A DNA stretch of 64,000 nucleotides, taken from NCBI RefSeq assembly GCF_921293095.1, contig NC_060248.1, forward strand, positions 138,272,972 through 138,336,971. Reading direction: 5' to 3'. Positions 5,531-36,567 of the stretch are shown here, in pieces; the stretch's first letter is position 1, and each line of letters opens with the position of its first letter. Origin of the DNA: Ischnura elegans (Eukaryota > Arthropoda > Insecta > Odonata > Coenagrionidae). The position numbers and the translations under genes are program-made. The notes beneath the pieces are model-generated. The model did no database searches and was not told the DNA's origin. It worked only from the letters and a program-made list of their open reading frames with translations.

Positions 5531-5800
5531 TATGAGCATATATAAATGCAAATATTCGTTATCCTAAACCTGATATTACGTCGCGGGGATAGGGAGATAT
5601 GAAATTTTCCAGTAAAGAAGACTTGATTGGTTTCTTATTGACCTTCTTGGGCTCATGATTTCCTGGAAGTTCCAAGGAGATTTTTTACTACCACGAATCC
5701 CTATTATTCCGACAGATGTGCCAATTGAATACATATGGGATCAATTTCTAATTAGATTGGCATTCGCTATGTCAATAAAAAGGACCAAAATACGTCTGTT
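5531..5800. repeat. S2 fragment
   Basis: This is a shortened piece of module S2 (compare 2190-2330 and 3300-3400). Shared phrases are CCTGATATTACGTC and TTCCGACAGATGTGCC. Non-coding. Confidence 0.5.
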
Positions 5801-7010
5801 TGTGGCTTAGATATTGGAAAAAGATAACAGAAATCTTATATCACAATTCACGTTCTATCATAAAAATTTCAAAATGGCACGCCCAATAACAAAGGATAAA
5901 ATGAGACCTATCGATATTATTTTATTTCGATATATCTTCATTATGAATCATTACTCATTGAAATATTTCACATGTGAGTATAGAACGTGGCTGTATAAGC
6001 GAATAATTAAAAATTTTATCCCCGTATCTATGTAAATAAGTTGAAAAAGACATGTATCGAATGCACACTTTGATAGGTAATACCTTCGCCTCTAATTATT
6101 TGATCCGCTTGATTTTACTTTTGTCTGATTAAAAACGTCAATTTTAGTATTGTATTTTTATTTTATATTCATACCATGAATAACAAAAAAGTTATTAGCG
6201 AAGAAAGCGTAACCAAGAAGATTGTTATCGATATAACTCTCACATGAATCGATCGAGTGGAATGGTTATCATTGAAAAAGTTGTCCTTTTTGATTATAGT
6301 ATTACCCTGAAAATTTCATTCATCTAACTTGAACGGTTGCCAAGTTATTCAAGATCGTGTGCTTGTGAGGAAACTTGTATAAAACGATTTAGATATATCC
6401 CCATTTACTTTACATTGAAAATATATTTCGGCATAAAGTTGAAACTATGGTTGCCATGGAGACCAAAATATAACAGAAATCTTATATCACCAATCACGTA
6501 CTATCCTAAAAATTTCGGACATCTACGGTCAATAACAAAGGAGAAAATTAGACCTATCGAAATTATTTCATTTCGATATATCTTCCAAAGGAATCATTAC
6601 TCAACAAAATATTTTACATGTACGTATAGTACGTTGCTGTCCAAGCAAATAATTAAAAATTTTATCCCCGTAACTATGTAAACAAGTCTGAAAAAGACAT
6701 ATATCGAATGCACCATTGGATCGATTATAACTTCGCTTCTAGTTATTCGATCCACTTGATTTAACTTTTGACAGATTAAACACGTCAATTTTAGTATTAC
6801 ATTTGAATTTCGTATTCATACTTCGAATAACGAGAAAGTTATTAGCGAATAAAGCGTATCCAAGGAGATTGGTATCGATATAACTCTCACATGAATCGAT
6901 CGAGTGGAATGGTTATCATTTGAAAAGTTGTCTTTTTTGATAATAGTATTACCCTGAAAATTTCATTCCTCTAACTTGAACGGTTGCCAAGTTATTCAAG
7001 ATCGTGTGCT
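5801..7010. repeat. S6 tandem repeat, 647-bp period
   Basis: Two roughly 647-bp units lie in tandem: the phrase around 6285 recurs at 6932. The same tandem pair with the same period occurs at 28990-30305. Open frames of 73-114 codons within each unit persist together with surrounding non-coding identity, so they are not evidence of a gene. Confidence 0.7.
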
Positions 7011-7735
7011 TCACAAAATAATGGCGACAATGATTTTCTCACGTGCAGGATATTTTTCGGAATTTTATTATGAATTAACCAAGAGGGTTATCGGAAAAAC
7101 AGGGTAGGGCGTGAGGGTACGGAGTACCCTCTAAGGGTTTTCACGGAGATTCCAAATTTTCATATGCCGAAGTCTCAAAGCCGAAATCCGAAATTTAATA
7201 TTCGTCTCCTCGACAATGGAAAATCGAAAATCGTTTATTCCTCGGAATTCTTTCGACTTGTGAATATTCCAAGATAGCCAAAAAATCAAGCAAAAAATCT
7301 AGTATCTTGCGTTTCAAGGAATTTGTCCTACGATTATTGCAAGTTGGTCAAAAAAAAATCCAAAGTTAGTCCCGTAAGAAAAGCATTGGAAATTTTAAAA
7401 AAAATGATAAAAAATAGTAAATATAAATACACCGTTATGACAACCGTACCAAAAAATCAATCAAAAAATCTAGTTTACGTCCATTGAATATCATGTTCCT
7501 ACCACGTTTCAAAATACGAAATAAAAGCAAAAAACTTTTAGTCCCATAAGGCTCCCATGTTAATTCAAGTCGATATATCTCGAAAACTAATCGACTTTTT
7601 CGAGTTTTCAGATTTTTCCTCCCGATGAATTTTTTTTTACTTTTACGTCCAATAAGTCAAATGTCCACATCTATCACAGTTTTGGCTGTGAATTTGTATC
7701 CATGAGTGAGTGAGTATGTCACACATCCCGCTGTA
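7011..7735. repeat. S7 module
   Basis: This stretch is almost identical to 30306-30650 over its first 340 bp. It then becomes a run of related units built on CAAAAAATCTAGT, AAGAAAAGCATTGGAAATTT and CGATATATCTCGAAAACTAA. It ends in a TGAGTGAGTGAG stretch directly before a GC hairpin block, the same junction as at 31000-31080. Confidence 0.65.
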
Positions 7736-8619
7736 TATATACGGGACTCGCTGTAGCTCGCTAGGGGGCTCCGCCCCCTTAGAACCCCCGGATCCGGCTT
7801 TGCCGTCTAATTTTGTGTGTGTTTGGTGAATTTTTTTTACGAATAATCTCACCGCGAATGAAGAACGAGAGCCAACCCTCGGCTACGCCACTGCCGGTTT
7901 CGGCGTCGCAATCTTCGCAACGGCCTCTTGATTCGTCGAAGTTCTTTCCATTTAGTTCAAAAACCCTTTTCCGTCCAGGGGGAACGTTAGCTCCCGCTTG
8001 AGCCGCCGTCGTAAGGACTCGGTCGGCCGAAAGTACGATATATGTTTTCCGAATCTTTTATTTATCGAAATTTATGTGATTTTTGGAATTGTTCTGCTTA
8101 CATCTCTGTAGCAAAGGGAGATTAAAACAATCTGTTGCCAACATCCGGTTGAAGATATTGCCAGCATGTATGGTAATCATTTTCATTATTCAACCCACGA
8201 AAATAAGTCGAGGGCAATGGAACGTATTCTTTTTTTCCGTAAAAGGTATTCACAAACGGATTATCTGCCGGCTTCGCAGAAACACCACTTGGAAGCTCAG
8301 TTCCCAAAATTACCGGGTTAGAGAAGGGCGTGGGTAAGGAAAACGCACCCTCTACAACGCTACGGTCTGCTTCACCGGCAATTTCTTCGGAACGGCTTTG
8401 TCATTCCTCGAATCTCTGTGCACAAAGTCCTCGGGGCCGTATTCGCCGTCCAGTGAGGAAGGATAGCGCACACCGACCCACCTTCTCCTGCACACTCCTT
8501 GGAACGGATCGCCGTTCCTTGTATCTTGTCCATATAGTTCTAGGTACCGGATCCGCCGGCCATTGGGTAGGGTTAGCACCCGCCACGTCCGTCGTGGCCA
8601 GCGAACTCCTAGTAACGGC
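7736..8619. repeat. GC-rich hairpin block B (left of the insertion)
   Basis: The block begins with the palindrome GGGGGCTCCGCCCCC (about 7764) and continues with CGGCTTTGCCG-type hairpins. A less structured stretch (8000-8330) separates two GC-rich parts. It ends at AACGGC, half of a hairpin whose other half (TTCGCCGTT) resumes at 21194. Confidence 0.65.
8614..8619. repeat. Target site duplication, left copy
   Basis: AACGGC lies immediately outside the left arm of the long inverted repeat and is identical to 21188-21193. Confidence 0.75.
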
Positions 8620-9215
8620 AGTAGTTAGCTTTTGTATGTTTTGCAACAATTGAGGTCAATTATCCATTAAAGGAATCATTAATTACGATATCACCAGACG
8701 AACTTTCGCTGACCCCCTTCCCCCCCCCCCCCTCCCCTCCAGCCCGCGAAAGATTTCCAACCTCCCCTCCTCATAAGAAATCTTCATCTGAAAATGATCT
8801 CATAGGAGCACAATATGAATTCCAAAGCCGTTGAATTACGAAGAGTCCCCACGGCTCGATAAGGCAATTATTACCTCCGGGTAAAAAAGTCAGCAAGACG
8901 GTGATACAACAGCATAATTACCCCCGCGATCTATTGAAGGTTGTCGATACTGATTTCGTGCTGTCCGCTTCCAAAAGGCATACTATTGTGTTTTTAGTCA
9001 TCAGAATAGACAATTTAACGTAGTTGGGGGTGAGAGTGAAATTATCCGGCTTTGAAGACGAGAATGGAAGAGTGGAACGAGCACCGGCATCCACCTCCCT
9101 CTCCCGCCTTTCCTTACCTCCGACCCACATCCCTCTTCCGAGACACGTACGGATGTCACATAGTCGGCTCAAGAAGGAAGAATTTTATGAGCGTCGAGCA
9201 CTGTGCCTGTGACAT

Positions 9216-9556
9216 ACTAATGTTTAATCTGTTATATATGTAAGAATCAGCGATATGAATGGACGCATAACTGAGTAATGGTAAATTAATGTCCACTAAT
9301 ACCTTCCGTTGAGTGACAGCGTCGCGGTGTGAAATTACTAAGGATTGCAGCTTCTGTAACTTGGATATTAGGTACAATTCACGGAATATATCAGCGTAGT
9401 TCCAATTACTAATGTTTATTCTGCTATATATGCAAAAATCAGCGATACCAATGGATGCATAACTAGTAATGGTAATTACAATCCACTCATACCTTCCGTA
9501 GAGTGACAGCGTCGCGGTGTGAAAATACTATGGATTGCAGTTCCTGTAACTTGGAT
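9216..9556. repeat. 192-bp tandem duplication (left arm)
   Basis: Two copies, starting at 9216 and 9408, share the phrase GAGTGACAGCGTCGCGGTGT. The pair is mirrored in the right arm at 20250-20590. Confidence 0.7.
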
Positions 9557-9780
9557 CGATGCGACACCATTTTTTCATTTTAGCGTGGTGGTTTTACGAA
9601 GTAAAAAAATTCGAAACGGAAAGGTTGTAATATGATTTAATTAACAGAACATTACTGAAAATTCATGTTCTGGGGGGAGGTTAGTTCTTCCACATCTCAA
9701 TAGATAAATGTTTGCTTTGAACGGTATAGCTGTTATTATCCTTCGAATGAGTCAAATTTTCTAAGACTCATTGCGGGTAT

Positions 9781-10069
9781 GGTATTTGGAGGAGGCGACC
9801 GACAGCTGAGGTCATTTTCGCCATGAGGGAAGGGTAGGTAAGGAAGGGTGGAGAGAAACCCGACGTCGGCATTAGCTTGCTCTGAACGAAAGGCGCCAAG
9901 GGGACAAACGGCTTAACGTCCCATCCGACGGACGCTCAAAATGTCCTCCACACAACATTCAAGCAGGGATTGGACAGACTCTGAAAATTCTCTGCCGCTG
10001 CCGGGATTATGAACCCGGGCCCGCCGGGTGGGAAGCCAACACTCTAGCCACCGCGACAACCCGATCCCC
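9781..10069 (-). mobile_element. tRNA-derived SINE (left arm)
   Basis: On the minus strand the head carries an A box-like segment (GTGGCTAGAGTG) and a B box-like segment (GGTTCATAATCCC). A conserved body follows with GACGTTAAGCCG and GTCCCCTTGGCGCC. It has the layout of an arthropod tRNA-derived SINE transcribed by RNA polymerase III. It is the mirror of 19737-20025. Confidence 0.75.
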
Positions 10070-10433
10070 AAGTTATTCAGGGTCCATTGTAATGGTACAC
10101 TGATATCCTTATTCAAAGATTTTTGACAATTATTACAAAAACAATGTTCCTCCTTCAACGTAATACACGAATCAATGATTAATGTCATTTTCATTTCGAT
10201 CGGAAAGGTCTGTTATGCATGTAAGATATTTTCTATTCATATGTTTTGATCATTGTATTTGTTTTTAATCCTACAATTAGATATTTCTAGGGTGTAATTA
10301 AGTCAAACCACATTTTATTGTGTGATATATATTTTTTTATTCTACTAAGTACATAAATTTTAAGTTTTCATTATGTTATATACAAGTTTTCCTTGAAAAC
10401 AGCCCCGCAAATGTTTTTATTTAACCATTCTAC

Positions 10434-10661
10434 CTATCCTACTTTTAAAATTAAATATTTTGGTAGTTTAATCCATCTTTTCTTCTCCTTATGACTAATA
10501 TACGCAGTTTGTTCTCCTCTTGCTCTCCCTACTCGTACCACAAAATAATTTTCACTTTCAGCCAACTCCCTTGATTGTAAGAATGTTCCCTTCCTCTGCA
10601 AATTCATGAGTCGACACATCACCTCTTCTGAAAATATCCATAATACTTTAAAAGAAGTCAT
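10434..10661 (-). CDS. Unrecognised 75-codon frame (left arm)
   Basis: The frame is rich in Arg, Lys and Glu and ends in a short segment with the pattern KLPKYLIL. It sits just downstream, on the same strand, of the dUTPase remnant and is mirrored exactly at 19145-19372. I do not recognise a family. It could be the eroded end of a longer gene belonging to the element, or chance. No splice sites or promoter were identified. Confidence 0.25.
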   Translation of the reverse strand: MTSFKVLWIFSEEVMCRLMNLQRKGTFLQSRELAESENYFVVRVGRARGEQTAYISHKEKKRWIKLPKYLILKVG

Positions 10662-10732
10662 AAAGTTTAATTTAAATATTCAAGTATGTTTTAACAACAC
10701 ATGAAATATTTTCAACTCACATTTGGATTATT

Positions 10733-11166
10733 CTAACCTTTATCGCTTCTTCTAAAACCAGCAGTATTTCGACTAGCCTGTGAGACTTCCTCGTTGATAA
10801 CTACAAACTGTACGTCTTCAGCTATATTTTCAAAACTTATTTGACATAGACGAGCACCAGGAGATGATCCTCATCCGAATGATTGTATAATATTATCTTT
10901 ACTTCGCCTCGATAACACTTCCTCCAACCTCTACACCATATTTCAAACTCATTCCTGATCGACTGGCATTTCGATCGTAATATCCCTTTTTGATCTCGAG
11001 AGAGAATCAATCTTCTCACAAGACTTCTCCCCCGTTTAAGAATAATGTTTGAATCTATTACACTATTGTCATATCCCGCTGAACAATCATATGTCGCTTT
11101 TGGAACCATTGCAAGTGGACGCATTTTTTTCGAAGATTTACATTTTAATATAGTTTTAAACATCAA
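10733..11166 (-). pseudogene. Decayed dUTPase (left arm)
   Basis: dUTPase hydrolyses dUTP to dUMP and is common in large DNA viruses as well as in cells. This copy is the mirror of 18640-19073, where the motifs are described. It has the SAGYD motif, an SRSG motif, YRGEVKIILYNHSDED and a C-terminal RNTAGF, but they lie in three different reading frames, so no working enzyme can be made. It lies on the strand reading outward from the spacer. Confidence 0.7.
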
Positions 11167-11887
11167 TTTCGAGACTTTTAAGTTGTCTTAATGTATTTAT
11201 ACTTAACTCTACAGAAGGCGTAGGACGCAGGCAATGGAATTTTACACAATGGTACATCGCTATTTTCCAACGGGAAATGTTTCAGTAATATTCTCAGCAT
11301 ATGGATTTTCATTTTATTTGCCTTGATCCCAATGTAAAGATAAGGTTTTAATTTTAAGACAAGATATTCATTGTATGGGCTGCTTTGTTGCTCACTGTGA
11401 CATTTTGCAAGTTTTTTTTTTTATTATAGTCATTGTTTTGAGCGACCTTTTTACTGGTGGATTATTCGGAATTGAATCTGGACTTAGCCCATGGTATGGA
11501 TTCGATTCGAAGAATAAATTGTAATGACATGCGTGATTTTCGATGACAGGAGTCACGAAGAATAGCTTATGTTAAGCTAATAGTAACAAAACTTGTTTAT
11601 GGAGTTTTAAATTTTTACTCTAACATGAATAGCAAGATAGCCTGGCATAGGGAATCAAAATCATGAAAGGAAAAACAATACAAACGGAGATTGGTTAATT
11701 AATACATCAATGAGGGTTTCTGAGTGGGAATTCCCTTAAGAGATACAGGTTGGATCTTTATTCACAACCTTTAAACAAAAGATATTAGCTTATTGAGGAC
11801 GGATGGCGTATGTGAGGAGATGCATATCATATTGTTTGATGATAATAATGACCTATTGTAATAGATGGTCAATAAAATCATCAAACA

Positions 11888-12139
11888 TTATACATACACG
11901 AAAACAGAAAAAGAAGCACCAATTTTCTTCCGAAAAGTGTGTATCTCGTGTGACATGCCATTAATAACGCTTGTTTGTACGCAAAAGTCCATTATAAGAA
12001 CCAAATACCTCAGTGCTTCAATCACGACAACTTCCAATATGTGATTACAGCGTTCCACTTCATAGCCCTCAACGACGGGCCTCTTGAAGTCTCTACTGAA
12101 CTCCAAAATGTCGGATGTGGAGATAATTATTTCATCCAA
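11888..12139 (-). CDS. Unrecognised open frame (left arm)
   Basis: This 83-codon frame opens with a TTG start and has an in-frame stop two codons upstream. It contains a hydrophobic middle (ALRYLVLIMDF) and the phrase SHEIHTF. The mirrored right-arm copy (17667-17918) differs by one residue, Arg to Trp. No family is recognised and it may be chance or a pseudogene piece. Confidence 0.2.
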   Translation of the reverse strand: MDEIIISTSDILEFSRDFKRPVVEGYEVERCNHILEVVVIEALRYLVLIMDFCVQTSVINGMSHEIHTFRKKIGASFSVFVYV

Positions 12140-12312
12140 AATTCACAACTGAGATATGCATCAGTATTCGCTTCACAAAATTGCTGAAAACACACCCGTT
12201 TCGCTCACCGCCAGGCTGAAGCACTAGTAAACAAACCGACCGATCACCTCTGTCTCATTTCTGAAATTGACCACCAGATGTCGACTACTTTGATTCCTAT
12301 TGTCAATAGGAA

Positions 12313-12981
12313 ATTGTACCGTATCTTCAGCCACAAATGGTATTGTATACTTTATGTGGAAGGGCAGCCCTCTTAGTTTCACGTCGTAATCGATTATTTA
12401 GTTCCCTATGCATTCTTTAGCCCTGTTCTGTGTCCACATCATTCCACTTCCTTCTTTCCACCATTTCTTTTACAATTGTCTCCGTAACCCAAGGCTTCTT
12501 TATCCTTCTGCTGACAACGTAGGCAATTGACTTCTCCACCGCATTGGCTATTCCCGTTTTAATATCATCTCATCTTTCCTCAACAGACTTCGTACTTTCA
12601 ATCTCCCGTACACTGATGCCCACTAGTTCCTGATATTCTCTCCGCCTATACACACCACGTACCTACTTACCTCCTCCCCCAACAATCCTTTCACACCCAT
12701 GATTGAGAAGCATTCATTCGTTAGGAATTCATACACCACCACCCACCTTCCTTTCTAGCATCTTCCTATTCCCCCTCTTCCTTCCGAGAGGATACGACTG
12801 TTTGCTGCGTGAGTACCCGCGTTAGTTGGAGTAGGAGGAGGTAGGAAAACATTTTTCACTGGCACCGCTACGACGAAGATGTTTAGGATCCTTGGACTGA
12901 GATTCATTACTTACTATACTGCCTCACTGCCCTTCCACATAAAGTAAACAATACCGTTTGTGGCTGAAGATACGGAACAAT
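12313..12981. mobile_element. Nested 669-bp inverted-repeat element (left arm)
   Basis: About 55-bp inverted ends (12313-12367 and 12927-12981; core CCGTATCTTCAGCCACAAA) enclose a fragment of the RTE LINE and about 280 bp of unrelated sequence. It looks like a small MITE-type or fold-back element that holds LINE sequence. It is mirrored at 16825-17493. No clear target duplication was found. Confidence 0.55.
12368..12644 (-). pseudogene. RTE LINE ORF2 fragment (left arm)
   Basis: The minus strand matches the endonuclease/RT linker of the RTE LINE at 40960-44286 (about 42765-43045 there). It reads EYQELVG-like, then VEERRKW and NNRLRRE phrases. It has an in-frame stop after EQG. Where the full copy has a stop after KSIG, this copy has sense codons (KSIAYV), which suggests that stop is a private mutation of the full copy. 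Confidence 0.8.
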
Positions 12982-13322
12982 AGGAGGCAACACTCAAAAT
13001 TAGAAATTGAATTTCGTTATTTTAAACCAAATATATATGAATGAAAATCACAATCGCAAAATTTCAGAACTCAAATTCGATTTTTAACTGAGATAAGTAG
13101 CATCATGAGTCCGCTAGGAGCTTTGGCCACGCCCACGACGCGAAACGTATTTCTATTGGCTGACGCCGTGTGACGTGTGAACCTCATGAATGTCGCGAGA
13201 TTAACGCTTGAAGAAGCCGTAATCACATTGGATTCGTGGAAATAGTGACCTAAAGTGTATCATCATGGTGAAAAAAAACGTTAATTTTGTTCTGGCTGAT
13301 AATCGAAATGTACTGACATTAT

Positions 13323-16300
13323 CAACTGAGGCACGGTGAACAATTTTTTTGTCTTAAAACGAATCATTTCATTGAAATGAAACTTCTTAAGATGAAATGT
13401 TTAAATTTTTGATAGAGACAGTAATCATTGCAATAGAGTATGTGCACATTTTTGGCAAGTGATCTTAAAAAAAATGTACACCTCAATTAGGCTAAATTCC
13501 GAGTCTGAGAATAGAGAAGTACTTTTTAAGTGAGATATTAATTATTAAAATTTTCAAAATTAATGATGCGCTGAAAAACCAGTCGGCCATATTCTCAAGG
13601 CTGTGACGTCATTTTGTTCGATGTGTTCTCAGGCATACCTTGTTCTTTAGGGTGAGTCCCTCTCCAGCCTATACTGAGTTTTGAAAGAAGCCATGGAATG
13701 GCTTGTGAACTACCTTAAAAGTGTTGACATGCCATCATCTACATCTTTTAATTCATTTATTTCTGGGTTACGCTGACGACAAGGCTATCAACTTTTCTAC
13801 CTTGAACTACCTAATCGTATTTCTTACTCCTCGGTTCTCGCATTTGCGTTCGTTTGCAGATTTATAGTGACATTGAAATTAAGAGAAACTTAAACAGTGA
13901 TGATCCTTGAAAATAGTACGACTTAATTCGTGAAAACTAAGTCACTAATTAGTAACTAACTTAGTAACAGTCCCCGTTCTACTAACTAAAAACGGAAAAT
14001 TAATTTTTGATAAAAAGTGATAGTTTGGGTACTCAAAATGTTTTTAATTTATTTCCAAACATAGTGATGCTAATATTTTCCAAATCGGATGTGAAATAAG
14101 CTCATTATTACGTATCACAAGTCGGGACTACTTTTTGGAAATGCACCGCACGCAGGGATTCCTCGCTTAATGGATAGTCATAACAAGACACTTAAACCCT
14201 GAAAACAAATGAACTTATGCTGTGAAGAAATGTAAAATGAATCAAATTTTAAATAATGCTAACAAATGCTTCGAGAAGCATATTGAAACCGAATGAATGA
14301 AAAGTAATCGTCTGATCTAACTATCAAACATTTGATTTCCAGCCCGAGAGATTTCCATCATTCATCCGGACGAAGTTTTCAATAACAAATTTTTAGATAT
14401 ACCTCACAAATGCTATTCATAAACCTCAACCAAGCAAATGTATATCTGACTGACATATCTCTGTTAGCGAAATGAAAATAACTTGTAGAAACATTGAGAT
14501 AATCAGAACTCTGCCTTTGACTACATTAATTCTACGAAAGAACAAATACGTCGATAAAAAGTGCGTTTTTTTTAAGAAATTAAGATCAGATTACTGCTTA
14601 AACTGGACCAAAATGTAACTTCAGTTATTTGTGCTTACGTTTCAAACCTTAAATAGCCCAGAAGAAGAAGAACCCAGCTCAGTAGCGGCAATTAAATAAT
14701 GAACTATGGATATTCATCCAGTCACCACGGGCCATAACAGAATATGAAAAATTATTTTTCGCGAGTCAATAGTTAAATAATAATAGAATAGAAAATAGTT
14801 AAATAGATAAATTAAATTATGATTGGTATTTGAAATGATAATAATACAAATATCGATAGTTATCTACGTACCGGCACTTTTACTTCCGTAAACCTTCGAA
14901 TCGTGCTTACAAACTTTTGGCCAATTGCCTACTGTAAACAATCTTACTTAATTCACTTATGTTAGACCTAATTGCTGATGAGGTTTCCCATCGATTGCTC
15001 TTTATTATGAATGACGCAACACTACAAAAAAGCTCCAGTTCAACATTAAAACTTCGTTCCGAGGCATGTAGGTATAGTCCAACATAATCAGCACGGTCAA
15101 TCATTGAAGCATCCACCTCCGGGATATTATTTGAAGAAACCTTCACGAAACCTAATTCCATGAAAAGCACTTTAACGTATTTCCCTTTACACAGATCAGA
15201 TCTACCAACTTTTTCTAATGCACACGTAGTTTATTGTGTCATAAACACGATCATAACACGATAAACACCTTGCACGCTAATGAGATTGAACAGAATGACG
15301 TCACATACCGAGGAGTCAATAGATGAGCGTTTTCGTCTGCCCTATATCGTTGCGAAAACAATGCATGTTAAATATTAATTATTAAACAAACTAAGCAACA
15401 ATTAATGCTGTTAATCGAAAGTAATTATGTTTACGATACACTTTATCGAATAAACTGCATTTCAATCGTATTCCTCCCGGGTGCACATACTCTATTATAG
15501 TGGATGCTTTAATTTTTGGACATATCATCGTAAATTCCTTTACTTATTAATGGTTTTTAGTTTCCGGAAGTAACTTATGAAATAAAAAAAAAATGTCCTA
15601 TAGTTATAGCTGTTTTCTTGCTCTCTAAATCGAGGAAGTTCGGGGTTCTCTCCGTTTCTTTTAGGATTAGCATACAAATTTCGTTGGAACAGCATTTTCA
15701 AGCCAGAGGCCTCGCTTTGGTAAACTGTGCTCCTGACAATTCTTTAAGTAAGTTTCGTTCTATAAAAAATAGTAAGCAGTTGTCATCAAAATGATAGAGT
15801 AACTCCGAGATGGGGATTTTTACATGAAAATATCCGTAAGTTTGCACTTATATTTACATCAGAGTTACACGTACAGTCACTTTCAAAAGGTTTAGGACAA
15901 AGATTGTTGCACCACTTCTGCTTCTCAAGAAAATTTAGTATCCTGTACTACTTTCGTAGTTTTCTGCTGTGCTCCACTAACATTCCGCTTGTGAGTTTAT
16001 ATATATTTGCACTCAAAGGGATAAATTATTTTATACTGCAAATTTTTCATTCCGCTTCTATTTATGCAGGATGTAATGATTATTTCGTATGCATTTACTG
16101 CATACTTGAACCGGTTTTCACACTTACTTTTTATAATACGTACTTTTTGAGTAATTTTATGTTACCAAGGCGGGCAAGTGGTCATCGATTTGAACTGTGC
16201 TAGTAAAGGTTGAGGAATCGGGACTGTCTTTCATAATGTTTTCAGCTTTTTCTCCCGTTTTCTTTCTTATTTTCAGGTTTTTTGTATTCGTAATTTCGCT

Positions 16301-16483
16301 GTCATTGCTAATACGCTTTCATTGAAGCTAATGCAATTTTTTTAAATTAAGAAAAAAAATGGTTGATAAAATCATGACGTAGGCATTACCGTACAGTTTG
16401 AAGTCTAGCGAGAAGAGTCACACATTACATTGTATAATTTGATTAATATTCTTTTTAGATTGATGATAGTCAAACTATTTCCT
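13323..16483. other. Spacer of the long inverted repeat
   Basis: This unique 3161 bp between the arms is AT-rich. It contains one protein-like minus-strand frame (14907-15251) and otherwise nothing I recognise. No polymerase, integrase, transposase, capsid or ATPase motif was found on either strand. Both arms read into the spacer from a shared short ATG frame (MVKKNV...) that ends soon after each junction. Confidence 0.6.
14907..15251 (-). CDS. Unrecognised protein-like open frame in the spacer
   Basis: The minus frame stays open for about 114 codons. It runs from just after a stop at about 15252, through an internal ATG at about 15161, to a stop at 14907. Its composition is protein-like, with segments such as KYVKVLFMELGFVKV and RADYVGLYLHASER. 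I do not recognise a family. Because it lacks an ATG at the open start it may be an exon or a broken gene. It is the best coding candidate in the spacer. Confidence 0.35.
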
Positions 16484-16824
16484 ATAATGTCAGTACATTT
16501 CGATTATCAGCCAGAACAAAATTAACGTTTTTTTTCACCATGATGATACACTTTAGGCCACTATTTCCACGAATCCAATGTGATTACGGCTTCTTCAAGC
16601 GTTAATCTCGCGACATTCATGAGGTTCACACGTCACACGGCGTCAGCCAATAGAAATACGTTTCGCGTCGTGGGCGTGGCCAAAGCTCCTAGCGGACTCA
16701 TGATGCTACTTATCTCGGTTAAAAATCGAATTTGAGTTCTGAAATTTTGCGATTGTGATTTTCATTCATATATATTTGGTTTAAAATAACGAAATTCAAT
16801 TTCTAATTTTGAGTGTTGCCTCCT

Positions 16825-17493
16825 ATTGTTCCGTATCTTCAGCCACAAACGGTATTGTTTACTTTATGTGGAAGGGCAGTGAGGCAGTATAGTAAGTAAT
16901 GAATCTCAGTCCAAGGATCCTAAACATCTTCGTCGTAGCGGTGCCAGTGAAAAATGTTTTCCTACCTCCTCCTACTCCAACTAACGCGGGTACTCACGCA
17001 GCAAACAGTCGTATCCTCTCGGAAGGAAGAGGGGGAATAGGAAGATGCTAGAAAGGAAGGTGGGTGGTGGTGTATGAATTCCTAACGAATGAATGCTTCT
17101 CAATCATGGGTGTGAAAGGATTGTTGGGGGAGGAGGTAAGTAGGTACGTGGTGTGTATAGGCGGAGAGAATATCAGGAACTAGTGGGCATCAGTGTACGG
17201 GAGATTGAAAGTACGAAGTCTGTTGAGGAAAGATGAGATGATATTAAAACGGGAATAGCCAATGCGGTGGAGAAGTCAATTGCCTACGTTGTCAGCAGAA
17301 GGATAAAGAAGCCTTGGGTTACGGAGACAATTGTAAAAGAAATGGTGGAAAGAAGGAAGTGGAATGACGTGGACACAGAACAGGGCTAAAGAATGCATAG
17401 GGAACTAAATAATCGATTACGACGTGAAACTAAGAGGGCTGCCCTTCCACATAAAGTATACAATACCGTTTGTGGCTGAAGATACGGTACAAT
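16825..17493. mobile_element. Nested 669-bp inverted-repeat element (right arm)
   Basis: Mirror of 12313-12981, with ends at 16825-16879 and 17439-17493 and the same enclosed RTE fragment. Confidence 0.55.
17162..17438 (+). pseudogene. RTE LINE ORF2 fragment (right arm)
   Basis: Mirror of 12368-12644, in plus orientation here. It spans the EYQEL to NNRLRRE region of the RTE ORF2 and carries a TGA-type break and a TAA after EQG. It has no independent coding potential. Confidence 0.8.
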
Positions 17494-17666
17494 TTCCTAT
17501 TGACAATAGGAATCAAAGTAGTCGACATCTGGTGGTCAATTTCAGAAATGAGACAGAGGTGATCGGTCGGTTTGTTTACTAGTGCTTCAGCCTGGCGGTG
17601 AGCGAAACGGGTGTGTTTTCAGCAATTTTGTGAAGCGAATACTGATGCATATCTCAGTTGTGAATT

Positions 17667-17918
17667 TTGGATGAAATAATTATCTCCACATCCGACATTT
17701 TGGAGTTCAGTAGAGACTTCAAGAGGCCCGTCGTTGAGGGCTATGAAGTGGAACGCTGTAATCACATATTGGAAGTTGTCGTGATTGAAGCACTGAGGTA
17801 TTTGGTTCTTATAATGGACTTTTGCGTACAAACAAGCGTTATTAATGGCATGTCACACGAGATACACACTTTTTGGAAGAAAATTGGTGCTTCTTTTTCT
17901 GTTTTCGTGTATGTATAA
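17667..17918 (+). CDS. Unrecognised open frame (right arm)
   Basis: Mirror of 11888-12139 with one substitution (Trp instead of Arg in the HTF-x-KKIG phrase). It has no recognised domain and starts at TTG. Low support. Confidence 0.2.
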   Translation: MDEIIISTSDILEFSRDFKRPVVEGYEVERCNHILEVVVIEALRYLVLIMDFCVQTSVINGMSHEIHTFWKKIGASFSVFVYV

Positions 17919-18639
17919 TGTTTGATGATTTTATTGACCATCTATTACAATAGGTCATTATTATCATCAAACAATATGATATGCATCTCCTCACATACGC
18001 CATCCGTCCTCAATAAGCTAATATCTTTTGTTTAAAGGTTGTGAATAAAGATCCAACCTGTATCTCTTAAGGGAATTCCCACTCAGAAACCCTCATTGAT
18101 GTATTAATTAACCAATCTCCGTTTGTATTGTTTTTCCTTTCATGATTTTGATTCCCTATGCCAGGCTATCTTGCTATTCATGTTAGAGTAAAAATTTAAA
18201 ACTCCATAAACAAGTTTTGTTACTATTAGCTTAACATAAGCTATTCTTCGTGACTCCTGTCATCGAAAATCACGCATGTCATTACAATTTATTCTTCGAA
18301 TCGAATCCATACCATGGGCTAAGTCCAGATTCAATTCCGAATAATCCACCAGTAAAAAGGTCGCTCAAAACAATGACTATAATAAAAAAAAAAACTTGCA
18401 AAATGTCACAGTGAGCAACAAAGCAGCCCATACAATGAATATCTTGTCTTAAAATTAAAACCTTATCTTTACATTGGGATCAAGGCAAATAAAATGAAAA
18501 TCCATATGCTGAGAATATTACTGAAACATTTCCCGTTGGAAAATAGCGATGTACCATTGTGTAAAACTCCATTGCCTGCGTCCTACGCCTTCTGTAGAGT
18601 TAAGTATAAATACATTAAGACAACTTAAAAGTCTCGAAA

Positions 18640-19073
18640 TTGATGTTTAAAACTATATTAAAATGTAAATCTTCGAAAAAAATGCGTCCACTTGCAATGG
18701 TTCCAAAAGCGACATATGATTGTTCAGCGGGATATGACAATAGTGTAATAGATTCAAACATTATTCTTAAACGGGGGAGAAGTCTTGTGAGAAGATTGAT
18801 TCTCTCTCGAGATCAAAAAGGGATATTACGATCGAAATGCCAGTCGATCAGGAATGAGTTTGAAATATGGTGTAGAGGTTGGAGGAAGTGTTATCGAGGC
18901 GAAGTAAAGATAATATTATACAATCATTCGGATGAGGATCATCTCCTGGTGCTCGTCTATGTCAAATAAGTTTTGAAAATATAGCTGAAGACGTACAGTT
19001 TGTAGTTATCAACGAGGAAGTCTCACAGGCTAGTCGAAATACTGCTGGTTTTAGAAGAAGCGATAAAGGTTAG
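18640..19073 (+). pseudogene. Decayed dUTPase (right arm)
   Basis: The 109-codon frame from 18640 shows SAGYD (residues 29-33), matching dUTPase motif 1 (AGYDLYS). It also shows YRGEVKIILYNHSDED (85-100), matching the segment that normally follows motif 3. The intervening motif 2/3 region is seen only in the +1 frame (SRSG at 18842-18853, then KYGVEVGG). The C-terminal region, ending with an RNTAGF version of the RGxGGFGSTG motif 5, is in the +2 frame and stops at 19071-19073. The gene is thus broken by at least three frameshifts and lacks the usual LYS and GST residues. The order and spacing of all motifs make a dUTPase origin convincing. Whether it came from a virus or mobile element or from the host gene cannot be decided by eye. 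It lies 72 bp upstream of the 19145 frame. Confidence 0.75.
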
Positions 19074-19144
19074 AATAATCCAAATGTGAGTTGAAAATAT
19101 TTCATGTGTTGTTAAAACATACTTGAATATTTAAATTAAACTTT

Positions 19145-19372
19145 ATGACTTCTTTTAAAGTATTATGGATATTTTCAGAAGAGGTGATGTGTCGACTCAT
19201 GAATTTGCAGAGGAAGGGAACATTCTTACAATCAAGGGAGTTGGCTGAAAGTGAAAATTATTTTGTGGTACGAGTAGGGAGAGCAAGAGGAGAACAAACT
19301 GCGTATATTAGTCATAAGGAGAAGAAAAGATGGATTAAACTACCAAAATATTTAATTTTAAAAGTAGGATAG
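19145..19372 (+). CDS. Unrecognised 75-codon frame (right arm)
   Basis: Identical mirror of 10434-10661, starting 72 bp after the dUTPase stop on the same strand. It is basic and ends ...KLPKYLILKVG. It may be part of the same ancestral gene cluster as the dUTPase, but I cannot assign a family. Confidence 0.25.
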   Translation: MTSFKVLWIFSEEVMCRLMNLQRKGTFLQSRELAESENYFVVRVGRARGEQTAYISHKEKKRWIKLPKYLILKVG

Positions 19373-19611
19373 GTAGAATGGTTAAATAAAAACATTTGCG
19401 GGGCTGTTTTCAAGGAAAACTTGTATATAACATAATGAAAACTTAAAATTTATGTACTTAGTAGAATAAAAAAATATATATCACACAATAAAATGTGGTT
19501 TGACTTAATTACACCCTAGAAATATCTAATTGTAGGATTAAAAACAAATACAATGATCAAAACATATGAATAGAAAATATCTTACATGCATAACAGACCT
19601 TTCCGATCGAA

Positions 19612-19736
19612 ATGAAAATGACATTAATCATTGATTCGTGTATTACGTTGAAGGAGGAACATTGTTTTTGTAATAATTGTCAAAAATCTTTGAATAAGGA
19701 TATCAGTGTACCATTACAATGGACCCTGAATAACTT
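19612..19736 (+). pseudogene. Open-frame remnant with a CxC/CxxC pair, cut by a SINE
   Basis: An ATG frame reads about 42 residues including CFCNNCQKSL, a possible zinc-binding cysteine cluster. It then runs straight into the SINE head at 19737, so its original end is lost. The mirror is at 10070-10194. It may be a real truncated gene or coincidence. Confidence 0.2.
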
Positions 19737-20025
19737 GGGGATCGGGTTGTCGCGGTGGCTAGAGTGTTGGCTTCCCACCCGGCGGGCCCGGGTTCATAAT
19801 CCCGGCAGCGGCAGAGAATTTTCAGAGTCTGTCCAATCCCTGCTTGAATGTTGTGTGGAGGACATTTTGAGCGTCCGTCGGATGGGACGTTAAGCCGTTT
19901 GTCCCCTTGGCGCCTTTCGTTCAGAGCAAGCTAATGCCGACGTCGGGTTTCTCTCCACCCTTCCTTACCTACCCTTCCCTCATGGCGAAAATGACCTCAG
20001 CTGTCGGTCGCCTCCTCCAAATACC
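19737..20025 (+). mobile_element. tRNA-derived SINE (right arm)
   Basis: The A box-like segment GTGGCTAGAGTG (about 19754) and B box-like GGTTCATAATCCC (about 19791) are followed by a conserved body up to the CAGCTGTCGGTCGCCTCC phrase. Mirror of 9781-10069. Confidence 0.75.
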
Positions 20026-20249
20026 ATACCCACAATGAGTCTTAGAAAATTTGACTCATTCGAAGGATAATAACAGCTATACCGTTCAAAGCAAACATTT
20101 ATCTATTGAGATGTGGAAGAACTAACCTCCCCCCAGAACATGAATTTTCAGTAATGTTCTGTTAATTAAATCATATTACAACCTTTCCGTTTCGAATTTT
20201 TTTACTTCGTAAAACCACCACGCTAAAATGAAAAAATGGTGTCGCATCG

Positions 20250-20590
20250 ATCCAAGTTACAGGAACTGCAATCCATAGTATTTTCACACCGCGACGCTGT
20301 CACTCTACGGAAGGTATGAGTGGATTGTAATTACCATTACTAGTTATGCATCCATTGGTATCGCTGATTTTTGCATATATAGCAGAATAAACATTAGTAA
20401 TTGGAACTACGCTGATATATTCCGTGAATTGTACCTAATATCCAAGTTACAGAAGCTGCAATCCTTAGTAATTTCACACCGCGACGCTGTCACTCAACGG
20501 AAGGTATTAGTGGACATTAATTTACCATTACTCAGTTATGCGTCCATTCATATCGCTGATTCTTACATATATAACAGATTAAACATTAGT
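20250..20590. repeat. 192-bp tandem duplication (right arm)
   Basis: Mirror of 9216-9556, two units sharing ACACCGCGACGCTGTCACTC. Confidence 0.7.
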
Positions 20591-21187
20591 ATGTCACAGG
20601 CACAGTGCTCGACGCTCATAAAATTCTTCCTTCTTGAGCCGACTATGTGACATCCGTACGTGTCTCGGAAGAGGGATGTGGGTCGGAGGTAAGGAAAGGC
20701 GGGAGAGGGAGGTGGATGCCGGTGCTCGTTCCACTCTTCCATTCTCGTCTTCAAAGCCGGATAATTTCACTCTCACCCCCAACTACGTTAAATTGTCTAT
20801 TCTGATGACTAAAAACACAATAGTATGCCTTTTGGAAGCGGACAGCACGAAATCAGTATCGACAACCTTCAATAGATCGCGGGGGTAATTATGCTGTTGT
20901 ATCACCGTCTTGCTGACTTTTTTACCCGGAGGTAATAATTGCCTTATCGAGCCGTGGGGACTCTTCGTAATTCAACGGCTTTGGAATTCATATTGTGCTC
21001 CTATGAGATCATTTTCAGATGAAGATTTCTTATGAGGAGGGGAGGTTGGAAATCTTTCGCGGGCTGGAGGGGAGGGGGGGGGGGGGGAAGGGGGTCAGCG
21101 AAAGTTCGTCTGGTGATATCGTAATTAATGATTCCTTTAATGGATAATTGACCTCAATTGTTGCAAAACATACAAAAGCTAACTACT

Positions 21188-21193
21188 AACGGC
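21188..21193. repeat. Target site duplication, right copy
   Basis: AACGGC is directly outside the right arm and identical to 8614-8619. It continues into TTCGCCGTT, the second half of a hairpin unit. Confidence 0.75.
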
Positions 21194-22320
21194 TTCGCCG
21201 TTTCCTGATCCTCCGCTCCCAAATCCCCGCTGATCAGAGCGGAAGGGGGAGGGGCGCGGCTAAGTTGACTTATTCCGAACTGTAATGCATACTTTCATGT
21301 AACTGTAAGCTTTGTAAGAGATCGGTCGTACGATAGGCGTCAATTTTTAATATAGAATCCCCTTGTTCGGCTTCGCCGTCTTAGTTGGTGGTTGTCCGAA
21401 GAATTTCTATTCGAATAATATGACCAAAAATTGAGAGGCACCGTCTTCGCCGGCCAGGGGGTAGGGGAGCGGACCCTTGGCTGCTTCACCACAGGCATCG
21501 TCGGCAAAGTCTTCGGAACGTTATCGCTCATTCTCCTACCGCTGTCCACAAAGTCCTCAGGGGATATAGGGCTCGAACCTGAAGAACCCACTTCGCGGCC
21601 AGCTTGGTCGGCCGCCTTCCCGAACGGCTTCACCGTTCCCTGCCACGGTCAGTCGGAGGGAAGAGTCGTTAACCGCGGCTGCGCTTCGTAAGGAATCCCC
21701 CAAAGCTGCGCTGCCTAGACCTCTAGACGGCTTCGGCATTCCTCATTGTGGGCACCACGCCGCCCGGAGATTAAAGCAGTCTAACCGGGGCTGCCGCGCT
21801 CATTCCCCTGGACAGGTTCGCAGTTCCTCGCTTAGTGGGGGCTTCGCCACACCCGGGGGTTGAGCGTGCCCCCCCCGGGTGTACCCCGATTAGTCATCGT
21901 AACTGTTTCGCCGTTATTCGTTAAGAAGCGGCTTCGCCGCCCAGGGGGGGTAGAAGCCCCCACCGGTGCGCCACTTCTTCTTCCGGATGCCTTCGCAGTT
22001 TCTAGTAAAGGGTGGCTTCGCCGCCCGGGGGTTACTGACGCCCCCCGCGCCCACCTCTGTTAGTCCTCGTAACGGCCGTCGCCGTCTAATTTTGTGGGTG
22101 TTTGAAGAATTTTCATACGAGTAATGTGACCGAAAAGTGCTTGTGCAGAGGGGAGGGAAGCGGACCCTTGGATGTGCCACGACCGCCATCGACGGTGAAC
22201 TCCTCGGAACGCCGTTCCTCGTACGTCTATCCACTAAGTCCCAGGGACCAATTTTACCGGCCAGGGGAAAGTAAAGCGCCCGCCGCAGCCAGCTTCGCCA
22301 GCACACTCCGAAATGACGTA
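21194..22320. repeat. GC-rich hairpin block C (right of the insertion)
   Basis: This continues block B after the insertion. It has many GGCTTCGCC-type hairpins (for example about 21928-21944 and 22014-22030) and a part closely similar to block A (21895-22215 against 20-320). Long frames on both strands are by-products of composition. Confidence 0.75.
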
Positions 22321-23420
22321 TAGTAGTACGCGGTACAAAATGCGTGAAATGAAATATTTCGTGAATTATAATAATGTCTGGATAGTATTATACTGCGTTA
22401 CGTTAAATTGTAAGTTATCCAAACAATGATCATAGTGTACATACACGGAATTGCCGTTCTTGGAACGTAAAGTATGGCTTAAGTGTTTGTATTTAAAATG
22501 CGGGTTTAACGCAAGATTCCAAATACAAATATACGTAAATAGAAGGTGATAAGAGTTATTCATTTAATGAAAGCTGTACAGTGATTCCGAAAACGTTGGT
22601 GTTCTTTTACCTCAAAAATGCGACTAAACATGACAATATAGAGAAATACTGCATTTTCTCCCGTTATGTGTACGATTCGAAAGCTTTTCGAAATGACTTA
22701 CTTAAAAAACGAGTAAAGTAAATTGAAGAGAGCCTGAAAACATTCATTAACTTTCCTAGTAAACTGTAACCACCCGTATAGTATCCCAAGGTCGGGAGTA
22801 TGAAATTAATAGCATGCGTATTTTCGGAAAATAGTAAAATTCAAAGATGGTTTAATTCTTTTCACTGGAACAAAGGTTGACGGAAAGAAATCGTTATTCA
22901 TGTTAAGTGGAGAACATTTTAGGAATGCATAAGGTATTACTTTACTTCGTCTTACTGTCACAAGTACGAGGAAGGGAGCACAAAGTATTGTAAAAAGTAC
23001 AAATTCTGCGTTTGAATGATGCTATGTAAATTAATTTTCTGTCTAATTGCATAATTTTATAGGCCGTAATAACTTCAATTCCATTTCCATGACAGATTAA
23101 CTTCCACAGATGTATTTGATTATGCAGCCTACTATTTGGCTATAGGAACGCGGAATAAAGTGAAACAGAAATATCACCAGACCAGTAAGTTTAATGTTTT
23201 CTAACATCTTTAAAATTAGCAATTCTAAAACTTTTTCTTCTACGTTATGCGAGACATGGCAATAGGAACGCGACTTATCGAGACAAAAAAACTATCACCA
23301 GGCATGTAAGTTATTTTCATTAACATTATAAACAAAAATAGGTATTCTGAAATATGTTTTTATTTCTTACGGGATGCATGGCTTCACGAACGCAAATCAG
23401 CGTTAGACTTTAGTAACAAC
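22321..23420. other. AT-rich sequence, no gene seen
   Basis: I see no coding or RNA gene. Near 23130-23400 there are three loosely related roughly 110-bp units (GGCTATAGGAACGCG, GGCAATAGGAACGCG) related to 3460-3500. Confidence 0.5.
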
Positions 23421-24419
23421 CAGTTGCGCAAGGTATTTTCACTATTATTATCCATAAAAATTTAAATTCCAAAACATGTTCATTACTGTTACGCGAGAGA
23501 GGGCAACATTAAGGAAAATCAGGGTTAGATGACACCCATAACCACTAACTAAAGATTTTTCACAAACATTTTCCGCATAAATTTACATTCAAAACAACAT
23601 TCATCACTGCTACGCGAGATATTGTGCCAGGAAGGTAAAGCAAAGTACATGGGTGCGACAACCAGGAGGGTTATTTTTCTACAATATTAACAATTATAAT
23701 TTTAATTCAAACCATTTTCATCGCCGCAGCGTGAAATATTGTGATCGAAATTGGTCGCTTAGGCTTTCTGTTATGTAATAATGCGTGAAATAAATAGGCA
23801 GTTATTCTGGTTGAAACAAAAGAGTGCATATTGCATTGAAATCAGTGTGTTATTTACCTACTTTAGTTGAATTAAGTTATTTAAACTCACCTCGAAAAGT
23901 TACATCGCTACATCAAAGTCGCTTTCACTTCCACTCCATGTTGAAATCGATCGCTTGCCTGAGCGTAGAGGTACCGTCAACAAAGAACACCATACGTTTC
24001 CTGTGGCTCCATTGATAATCGGTTCAGTCTCCGGGATTCCTGTACCCCAAACACTCTTCCCTAACTCCTACGCATGAGTGCACGGAGGGTACCTTTCACC
24101 ACCGCTTACGCTTTCCAGATTGGTCATTTTGCATTGTTGCTATGAAGTAAGGCGTTGCATAAATAAATAAAAATAAATAAACAGTTATTCGGGACGGAAC
24201 AACAATAGAGTGCAAATTGCATTGAATTCAGTGTGTTATTCAACTCTTTTATTTTAATTGAGTTATTAAAACTCCCCTAAGATCCCTTAAGTATATATTT
24301 TGAGAATGTATTGAAAATAGTACATGCTTGCATTCGTATCTTTCCTTGTTTACTATAGCTGTCGATCTGATCTTTCATCTGCCGAGATTCGCCATATTCA
24401 TTAACCGTATAATTGGTGG
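23421..24419. repeat. S3 module, copy 2
   Basis: Direct-orientation relative of 3580-4536, followed as there by the hAT-like MITE. It has a short TAAATAAATAAA run near 24158-24180. No gene. Confidence 0.6.
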
Positions 24420-24714
24420 CAGGGGCGCAGCTACGAAATAAGGCTAGGAGGGGTTTCAGGCACAACTAATACTGGGGGGTTTGGAGGTATATTGCATTAC
24501 CACCAGGGTAAGCGGGAGGTGCGGAGGCCTTCCGCCGGAAAAAAAATTAAGGTAAAAGGCTCAAAATGGTGATTTTTACGGCTTTGTGAGGGATATTTTT
24601 ATTAATTCTAGCACTATTCCGAAAGTTATATTAACCCAAGTAAGTAAAATATATTTAACTTATTTAGAGCCTTGAACCTATCCCACATAACCTCTCCCCC
24701 TCGCTGCGCCACTG
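24420..24714. mobile_element. hAT-like MITE, copy 2
   Basis: Ends CAGGGGCGCAGC and GCTGCGCCACTG form a roughly 12-bp inverted repeat with one mismatch. The interior resembles 4537-4845. No clear 8-bp duplication. Non-coding. Confidence 0.6.
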
Positions 24715-36511: not shown

Positions 36512-36567
36512 TTCCTCATGCGAGGTGGATGTTACTGGTAATTGTACTGGTACCCTTATTTGAGTAT

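What the first reader, a model, noticed from the sequence alone, without database searches (positions are those of the whole stretch)
8620..21187. A mobile element made almost entirely of two 4.7-kb inverted arms, with a 6-bp target duplication
Seen: arms of 4703 and 4704 bp, a 3161-bp spacer, abrupt arm ends, and AACGGC duplicated exactly outside both ends. Known: a 6-bp duplication and a 5'-AG terminus fit Polinton/Maverick elements (IS3EU and Dada types also make about 6 bp), but TIRs of this length with no replication genes are not typical. Inference: a non-autonomous or eroded relative of Polinton/virus-like elements, or an undescribed giant fold-back type.
Basis: partly seen in the sequence, partly recalled or inferred. 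Interest (0 to 1): 0.92.

Follow-up and report, generated by a model that had tools for sequence, protein, structure and literature searches.

The report
Giant fold-back relative of Polintons
This is a gene-less piece of mobile DNA built mostly of two long mirror-image arms; it has the same ends as gene-bearing, virus-like Polinton transposons in the same genome and was probably spread by them, and its copies record how such long mirror arms arise.

Summary
Confirmed. The element at 8620-21187 has arms of 4703 and 4704 bp (7 substitutions, 1 indel), a 3161-bp spacer and AACGGC at both ends. The joined flanks with one AACGGC occur elsewhere in the genome, in 40 of 40 scored places of 250 candidates: a clean insertion.

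Sixteen elements in the 1.72-Gb genome have both ends of this type: ten fold-backs and six 17.4-kb elements, each of the six with an open Polinton-type integrase frame. All 16 have exact 6-bp duplications. In the one long copy scanned there are also an ATPase-like frame, polymerase motifs and a dUTPase. The fold-back arm carries a dead dUTPase at the same distance from the end.

Best reading: a non-autonomous Polinton. Arms are 99.83-99.97% alike within 8 of 9 copies but 0.05-3.5% apart between copies, and derived copies show left-end or right-end duplication. A hypervariable tip pentamer is equal at both ends in 16 of 16. Against: the long Polintons' own ends differ by 0-4%, the arm's direct parent was not found, and mobilisation in trans is inferred.

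The parts
8614..8619 (.). left target-site duplication AACGGC
   Evidence: empty site with one AACGGC elsewhere in the genome
8620..13322 (+). left arm (4703 bp terminal inverted repeat), 5' tip AGTAGTTAGC
   Evidence: tip elsewhere in the genome
8642..8646 (+). hypervariable pentamer of the left tip (TGCAA here)
8812..9080 (+). remnant matching residues 5-95 of the 191-aa left-end ORF of the long Polinton (arm 193-461), spread over more than one frame
   Evidence: tblastn; DNA 78-80% to the long Polinton left end
10745..11079 (-). eroded dUTPase remnant in the left arm, broken by frame shifts
   Evidence: tblastn with the long Polinton's dUTPase, E 1.5e-13; Pfam 0.0087, below cutoff; 12 of 14 PDB matches bear a dUTPase name
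12313..12981 (.). nested block with 55-bp inverted ends holding a 277-bp stretch 87% alike to the LINE at 42772-43048; shared by both arms
13323..16483 (.). spacer (3161 bp)
13431..15505 (.). separate dispersed repeat (about 2.09 kb, ends AATAGAGTATGTGCAC) nested in the spacer
   Evidence: 391 candidate places, 40 scored; boundaries from L050 and L051
16484..21187 (-). right arm (4704 bp), 99.83% to the left arm
16825..17493 (.). right-arm copy of the nested 55-bp-ended block
18727..19061 (+). eroded dUTPase remnant in the right arm
20726..20994 (-). right-arm copy of the left-end ORF remnant
21161..21165 (-). hypervariable pentamer of the right tip, same as the left
21188..21193 (.). right target-site duplication AACGGC

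Best explanation
A non-autonomous (satellite-like) Polinton. Shown: it has the tips, the 6-bp target duplication and remnants of end genes of gene-bearing 17.4-kb Polintons in the same genome; the family sits at ten places as fold-back units with exact duplications; this copy codes for nothing recognisable. Inferred: it is replicated as linear DNA by the Polinton's polymerase and inserted by the Polinton's retrovirus-type integrase, both supplied in trans. Its giant arms arose because, during replication of a linear molecule, synthesis switched template and copied one terminus onto the other end; this happened at least twice in the family with different breakpoints. From time to time the two ends are made alike from one end (as by pairing of the end repeats of a displaced strand), so arms are near-identical in recent insertions and drift apart afterwards.
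For: Insertion: empty site with one AACGGC at 40 of 40 scored places; 16 of 16 two-ended elements have exact 6-bp duplications, 10 fold-backs and 6 long elements; among 500-bp flanks of 14 loci the only match between loci was one 54-bp piece at 78%. Helper: all six long elements carry an integrase frame without stops, 98-100% alike; in the one scanned: rve 1.7e-12 plus chromodomain, a frame with Walker A motif and dUTPase 4e-33, polymerase motifs, a protease-like motif. Kinship: the dUTPase part of the arm is collinear with the long element's right end (arm 2033-2529 against 2041-2562 from the right end, E 4e-19); left-end ORF remnant; fold-back C2-43 carries 586 bp of long-Polinton left end at 99.5-99.7% at both its ends. 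End copying: left and right arms 99.83-99.97% alike in 8 of 9 copies while copies differ by 0.05-3.5%; pentamer equal at both ends in 16 of 16 (9 of the 16 are TGCAA; 200,000 re-pairings gave at most 13 equal, mean 5.6). Arm growth: copies C2-43, C5-33, C14 and, with most of its right arm missing, C5-133 share the order arm4703-spacer-X482-arm; window, C19 and C1-96 have X replaced by the left arm; C2-68 has about 5.13 kb of the right end copied to the left with a 3-bp overlap. The most divergent copy, C5-133, has arm pieces only 95.4-98.1% alike.
Against: The long Polintons' own inverted ends differ left to right (96.8%, 96.0%, 98.0% and 100% over 193-224 bp in four copies), although equal over the first 75 bases, and the two near-identical copies C1-58 and C7-116.05 both show it: so ends are not fully equalised in every cycle. 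Copy C5-67 has unlike arms (97.8%). At E below 1e-4 the arm matches the long Polinton only at 1-151, 168-461, 977-1129 and 2033-2529, so the direct parent was not found; the genome search for it did not complete (last try). No movement was observed; alike arms alone would also follow from recent insertion. The polymerase has no Pfam or PDB match and was recognised by motifs recalled from memory; in C1-58 the polymerase frame is interrupted. Capsid genes were not shown. My confidence was lowered from 0.8 to 0.75 on re-reading.
Confidence: 0.75

Rival explanations
1. The arms are kept alike after insertion by gene conversion inside the palindrome, and arm growth is host repair at fixed loci; Polinton enzymes supply only the insertions.
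For: Long palindromes convert readily (established knowledge). Copy C5-67 mixes a type-I left arm (0.05% from C1-96) with a right arm 2% off. The short ends of long Polintons are not fully equal, which fits conversion acting on long arms better than end copying in every cycle.
Against: The grown-arm form (type I) sits at three loci with different duplications and flanks, so it moved after it was made; tips agree at both ends in 16 of 16, long Polintons included, although some closely related fold-backs differ by 13-30% there; the most divergent two-ended copy has arm pieces 95.4-98.1% alike.
Confidence: 0.18
2. A fold-back class of its own with its own transposase (IS3EU, Dada or an unknown DDE family), whose tips only resemble those of Polintons.
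Against: The same tip and a 6-bp duplication are on six elements that carry an rve integrase frame; 586 bp of such an element form the ends of a fold-back; the arms hold remnants of that element's genes.
Confidence: 0.04
3. An assembly or long-read fold-back artefact, or a plain segmental inversion.
For: Fold-back chimaeras are a known long-read artefact (title and start of abstract of PMC12870357 seen in a search listing).
Against: Arms carry 7 substitutions and an indel; exact duplications at both ends; the empty site lies elsewhere; ten copies at separate loci with different internal layouts.
Confidence: 0.01

Closest known systems
Polinton/Maverick self-synthesising transposons (polintoviruses)
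   Same: AG tips (recalled as typical), 6-bp duplication, terminal inverted repeats; remnants of end genes of a gene-bearing Polinton in the same genome, whose six same-ended copies are 17.4 kb with an rve integrase frame.
   Different: This element has no recognisable working genes, is 12.6 kb and is 75% arms; the long relatives have inverted ends of about 193-224 bp.
Polinton-like viruses with long inverted ends in protists (PMC12220804, passages read)
   Same: The passages report inverted ends of hundreds to thousands of bp, about 4-6 bp duplications, and a search for ends up to 8 kb.
   Different: The passages seen concern complete, capsid-coding elements; the terms truncated, defective and non-autonomous do not occur in its main text.
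Fold-back DNA transposons of Drosophila (FB, Galileo, Tetris; recalled, Tetris paper PMC4079207 seen only in a listing)
   Same: Element made mostly of long inverted arms around a short middle, often non-autonomous, variable arm length (recalled).
   Different: Other transposase families and other duplication lengths (recalled); arm ends here come from a Polinton.
Defective genomes of protein-primed linear DNA viruses with one end duplicated (adenovirus; recalled)
   Same: Both termini derived from one end; end repeats alike; dependence on a helper genome (for this element inferred).
   Different: Here the molecules are fixed in chromosomes as transposon copies and form a lasting lineage.

Membership tests
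Polinton/Maverick | 6-bp target-site duplication | tested here: met
   16 of 16 two-ended elements and the empty site
Polinton/Maverick | Terminal inverted repeats with 5'-AG ends | tested here: met
   the tips listed begin AGTAG, also in a second Polinton subfamily on C8; the AG rule itself is recalled
Polinton/Maverick | Retrovirus-type (rve) integrase | tested here: not met
   not found in the window element; present in the six same-ended long relatives. So a derivative, not an autonomous member
[quoted passage not shown]
   not found in the window element; the long relative has a frame of over 1200 aa in two pieces with DANNLYG, YMSNSLYG and YSDTDS (recalled as polymerase motifs) but no Pfam polymerase match and no PDB match of the larger piece
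Polinton/Maverick | Packaging ATPase | tested here: inconclusive
   long relative: GPSGCGKT motif and weak matches incl. Pox_A32 0.003, all below cutoffs; not found in the window element
Polinton/Maverick | Adenovirus-type protease | tested here: inconclusive
   168-aa ORF with GSHW and ICGEYC (motif recalled); no Pfam or NCBIfam match
Polinton/Maverick | Double jelly-roll major capsid and penton proteins | tested here: inconclusive
   431- and 361-aa ORFs as candidates by size only; no Pfam match; the 431-aa ORF had one chance-level PDB match (0.87), the 361-aa ORF was not searched there; structure prediction not run
IS3EU / Dada | their DDE transposase on a same-ended element | tested here: not met
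   the six same-ended long elements carry an rve integrase frame instead; other frames were scanned in one of the six only
Drosophila FB fold-backs | arms made of short tandem repeats, about 9-bp duplication (recalled) | tested here: not met
   6-bp duplication; repeat searches show one 152-bp direct pair and one 55-bp inverted pair per arm, not arrays; the tandem-repeat finder was not run

The most novel reading that the evidence does not exclude
The fold-backs are a lasting lineage of satellite parasites of Polinton viruses, formed like defective interfering genomes by copying one terminus onto the other. They stay mobile by repeatedly taking up the terminal cassette (about the first 30 bp, once 586 bp) of whichever Polinton is active. 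The hypervariable tip would then be the recognition label by which helper enzymes choose their templates, changed at both ends in one replication cycle.
Probability: 0.3. Interest if true: 0.88.

Novelty: new variant of a known kind. Interest (0 to 1): 0.73.

Why it matters
How Polintons replicate has, to my knowledge, been argued from their genes and not shown. A family whose copies keep a record of end-to-end copying (alike arms, equal hypervariable tips, one-end duplications with mapped breakpoints, an end shared with a gene-bearing Polinton) is genomic evidence for linear, end-initiated replication with exchange between the two ends, and makes it testable by comparing copies. It also gives a source for very long palindromes in eukaryotic genomes, and suggests that Polintons carry satellites as viruses do.

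Tried and rejected
Plain inversion and artefact: rejected by the empty site and by ten separate copies. Other transposase families: rejected because the same-ended long elements carry rve integrase. Structured RNA: none in the window at Rfam's gathering scores. A viral-contig copy of the tip: none; close relatives of the polymerase piece and the 431-aa ORF in viral contigs: 3 and 1 pattern matches, none confirmed. Spacer as cargo of interest: about two thirds of it is an unrelated dispersed repeat. First idea that the arm is simply the right end of the present-day Polinton: only partly true, since most of the arm does not align and its tip segment with the ORF remnant matches the left end. Equal ends in every cycle: weakened, since long Polintons keep unequal end repeats. 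Not done: structure prediction and fold search (fetched whole-genome loci are not on the tool's list of allowed sources, so nothing was sent); the search for the arm's closest relative (window 10600-11400) did not complete.

Dropped rows and limits: the left arm of C1-68 (partial, 979 bp) was left out of the distance table, and C5-133 has no right arm there; one search compares nine copies over 1,451-4,704 bp, mostly the outer 2.6-3.7 kb of the arms, plus three short pieces (107-159 bp) of C5-133. Many of the 52 matches were not fetched, among them the fragments or diverged places on C3:118912099, C8, C9, C10 and C96. Six of 38 tip matches had no partner and are not in the 16 pairs; for C7-6.25 and C16-2.18 the second end was looked for and not found in the stretch fetched. 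One search compared eight pairs of copies, of which three pairs (0.05%, 0.28% and 2.13% apart inside) differ by 0%, 0% and 6.7% in the tip. Only the C7-116.05 copy was scanned for gene families, and frames were listed for it and C1-58.
Full report
What is there. The window is C3:138272972-138336971 of a 1.72-Gb assembly in 110 contigs. At 8620-21187 lies an element of 12,568 bp: arm 8620-13322, spacer 13323-16483, inverted arm 16484-21187. The arms differ by 7 substitutions and one indel. AACGGC flanks it on both sides.

It is an insertion. The flanking DNA belongs to a high-copy repeat. Joining 120 bp of each flank with one AACGGC gives a 240-bp sequence for which 250 candidate places were found and 40 scored; all 40 match over 1-240 (39) or 2-240 (1), at 99-100% as printed, 9 of them at the top score of 434 bits. 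The target is the left half of a recurring small hairpin, AACGGC-TTC-GCCGTT. This excludes a plain inversion and makes an assembly artefact very unlikely.

It has relatives with the same ends. The pattern TTTGTATGTTTNNNNNCAATTGAGGTCAA, just inside the tip, occurs 38 times in the genome and its reversed control 0 times. Sixteen elements have both ends, six places have one. In 16 of 16 the six bases outside the two ends agree exactly (window aacggc; C19 gattct, C1-96 gtggtt, C5-67 gccaat, C2-68 tcggtg, C5-33 caagtt, C2-43 gtcatt, C1-58 attatg, C7-116.05 cacgtg; C14 ctcatg, C1-68 cacttt, C5-133 ctcatc, C6-97 atgttg, C4-27 tacgtt, C15-7.85 aactac, C7-116.6 ggtgga). Ten are fold-backs; six (C1-58, C7-116.05, C7-116.6, C15, C6, C4) are 17.37-17.39 kb long. 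Not every fold-back was read to its last base.

The long relatives are Polintons. Each of the six carries a 414-aa integrase match without stops. In the copy scanned (C7-116.05, L026/L027) it matches rve at 1.7e-12 with a C-terminal chromodomain. The same copy has a 216-aa frame with a Walker A motif and weak A32-type matches below cutoff, a 168-aa frame with an adenovirus-protease-like motif, a polymerase frame in two pieces with the motifs DANNLYG, YMSNSLYG and YSDTDS (motifs recalled) and an endonuclease VII domain, and a dUTPase (4e-33). The polymerase has no Pfam or PDB match; in C1-58, otherwise 99.7-99.97% identical, its frame is interrupted. No library named capsid proteins. [quoted passage not shown] section 10 of PMC6431247). 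Integrase relatives are very common here: 2548 candidates, of which the best 101 were scored, 97 of the 101 without a stop. A second subfamily (C8:70794384-70809373) has an AGTAGTCAGG tip, a 166-bp terminal repeat and duplication GTGGTC.

The fold-back is derived from a Polinton. At E below 1e-4 the window arm matches the long Polinton at 1-151 (both ends), 168-461 (left end), 977-1129 (61%) and 2033-2529 (right end, same distance from the tip; 58%, E 4e-19). The 2033-2529 part holds the dUTPase remnant, broken by frame shifts; of 14 PDB matches of one piece, 12 bear a dUTPase name, one is uncharacterised and one is a Drosophila CG number. The 168-461 part is the start of the 191-aa left-end frame; the match stops at residue 95 in 9 of the 10 sequences searched and at 97-99 in C5-133. 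Fold-back C2-43 carries 586 bp of long-Polinton left end at 99.5-99.7% at both of its ends, while the rest of its arms is 96-99% like the window's. So a gene-bearing Polinton and a fold-back have exchanged ends.

How the giant arms arose. C2-43, C5-33 and C14 (with about 2.9 kb of other DNA in its right arm) have the layout arm 1-4703, spacer 1-3161, X (482 bp), arm 3732-1, that is, shared inverted ends of 3.73 kb; C5-133 has the same order with a 714-bp insert and most of its right arm missing. C5-133 is the most divergent copy by arms and spacer, so this layout is probably ancestral. Its inner boundary lies in a 55-bp inverted repeat of the arm. In the window, C19 and C1-96, X is replaced by an inverted copy of arm 3733-4703, so that the left end now makes up both ends. 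In C2-68 the reverse happened: the right end, through X and into the spacer to position 2238, was copied to the left and joined to arm 4584 at a 3-bp overlap, giving arms of about 5.13 kb. C1-68 is a 5.6-kb deletion form joined at a 3-bp overlap. C5-67 is a chimaera of a type-I left part and an ancestral-type right part with 563 bp of other DNA. The type-I junction shows at most 1 bp of overlap. Both ends from one end, with scattered breakpoints and short overlaps, is what template switching on linear replicating DNA would leave; this step is inferred.

The two ends are copied from each other. Left and right arms within a copy are 99.83-99.97% alike in eight of nine copies over 1,451-4,704 bp, although copies differ from one another by 0.05-3.5%. 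The exception is C5-67 (97.8%). The most divergent two-ended fold-back, C5-133, has arm pieces 95.4-98.1% alike over three short stretches, which suggests that likeness is set at or near insertion and then lost. A result against a strict form of this: the inverted ends of the long Polintons differ left to right (96.8% C1-58, 96.0% C7-116.05, 98.0% C4, 100% C6), and two near-identical copies share such a difference, so equalising does not happen, or not fully, in every cycle. The tip shows sharing most clearly: the bases at 6-11 and 23-27 vary between copies yet are the same at both ends of the same element, 16 of 16 pairs for the pentamer, with eight pentamers among the 38 ends and TGCAA in 9 of the 16 pairs. 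Of eight pairs of fold-backs compared, four close pairs (0.32-0.79% apart inside) differ by 13-30% of the first 30 bases; two type-I pairs differ by 0%, and two more distant pairs (1.65% and 2.13%) by 13.3% and 6.7%. Re-pairing the ends at random 200,000 times gave a mean of 5.6 and a maximum of 13 equal pairs. TGCAA and CAGGA occur in both fold-backs and long Polintons. The tips listed begin AGTAG, often AGTAGT; a repeated first motif is what protein-primed systems use to restore their ends by sliding or jumping back (passages of PMC3480470); applying this to Polintons is my inference.

Mechanism, with what is shown and inferred. Shown: insertion with exact 6-bp duplications at many loci, lack of recognisable working genes in this copy, ends shared with gene-bearing Polintons, exchange of ends, growth of arms by end duplication, alike arms and equal tips per copy. 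Inferred: replication by Polinton polymerase and insertion by Polinton integrase in trans; end repair through paired inverted ends. No transposition was observed.

Novelty. Full-text searches for six phrasings of non-autonomous Polinton/Maverick found 0 papers. A two-of-five search with Polinton, nonautonomous, palindrom, adintovirus and foldback returned 286 papers, of which 25 were listed and seen as titles and abstract starts; Polinton with terminal inverted repeats returned 82, 20 listed; a Maverick/insect/long-inverted-repeat search returned 164, 15 listed. None of the listed titles or abstract starts describes such a family; I did not read those papers except the passages cited here. Most subscription papers and the founding Polinton paper are not held, and Repbase/Dfam entries could not be searched. 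Long inverted ends of up to thousands of bases are already reported for protist Polinton-like viruses (PMC12220804, passages). Hence: a new variant of a known kind, with unusually clear evidence on how its arms form.

Noticed in passing
tips of same-ended elements, e.g. 8620-8649 and 21158-21187: Bases 6-11 and the pentamer at 23-27 of the tip vary strongly between some close copies, yet the pentamer is identical at both ends in 16 of 16; cause unknown.
   Followed up: partly
whole genome G000: Polinton integrase has 2548 candidate places; 97 of the best 101 scored have no stop and 18 share one score and identity, so Polintons look young and abundant here.
   Followed up: partly
L027:5443-5814: A dUTPase gene with an open frame inside a Polinton, about 2.1 kb from its right end. 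A Polinton+dUTPase paper search listed 11 papers; none was opened for this question.
   Followed up: partly
8200-8619, 21194-22300, 31100-32065: The target is a GC-rich high-copy repeat with a recurring small hairpin AACGGCTTCGCCGTT; the left (1-8600) and right (21400-31100) surroundings match each other in pieces at about 67-93%, a long complex repeat array.
   Followed up: partly
13431-15505: A 2.09-kb dispersed repeat with AATAGAGTATGTGCAC ends sits in the spacer and at many other loci (391 candidates, 40 scored).
   Followed up: partly
33394-37518 and 41220-44099: Two LINEs on the minus strand with reverse transcriptase and endonuclease; the first also has PHD and Baculo_FP domains.
   Followed up: no
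C14:12188299 and C14:12243793: Two fold-back copies with the same 16 bases of left flank and a 2.7-kb inner stretch at 100%, apparently one insertion duplicated with its surroundings about 55 kb apart.
   Followed up: partly
9215-9366 and 9407-9556: An imperfect direct repeat of about 150 bp (88%) in each arm, of unknown meaning.
   Followed up: no
L024-L027, L031-L034 (ends of long Polintons): The inverted ends of long Polintons differ left to right by 0-4% and near-identical copies share the difference, unlike the fold-back arms.
   Followed up: partly
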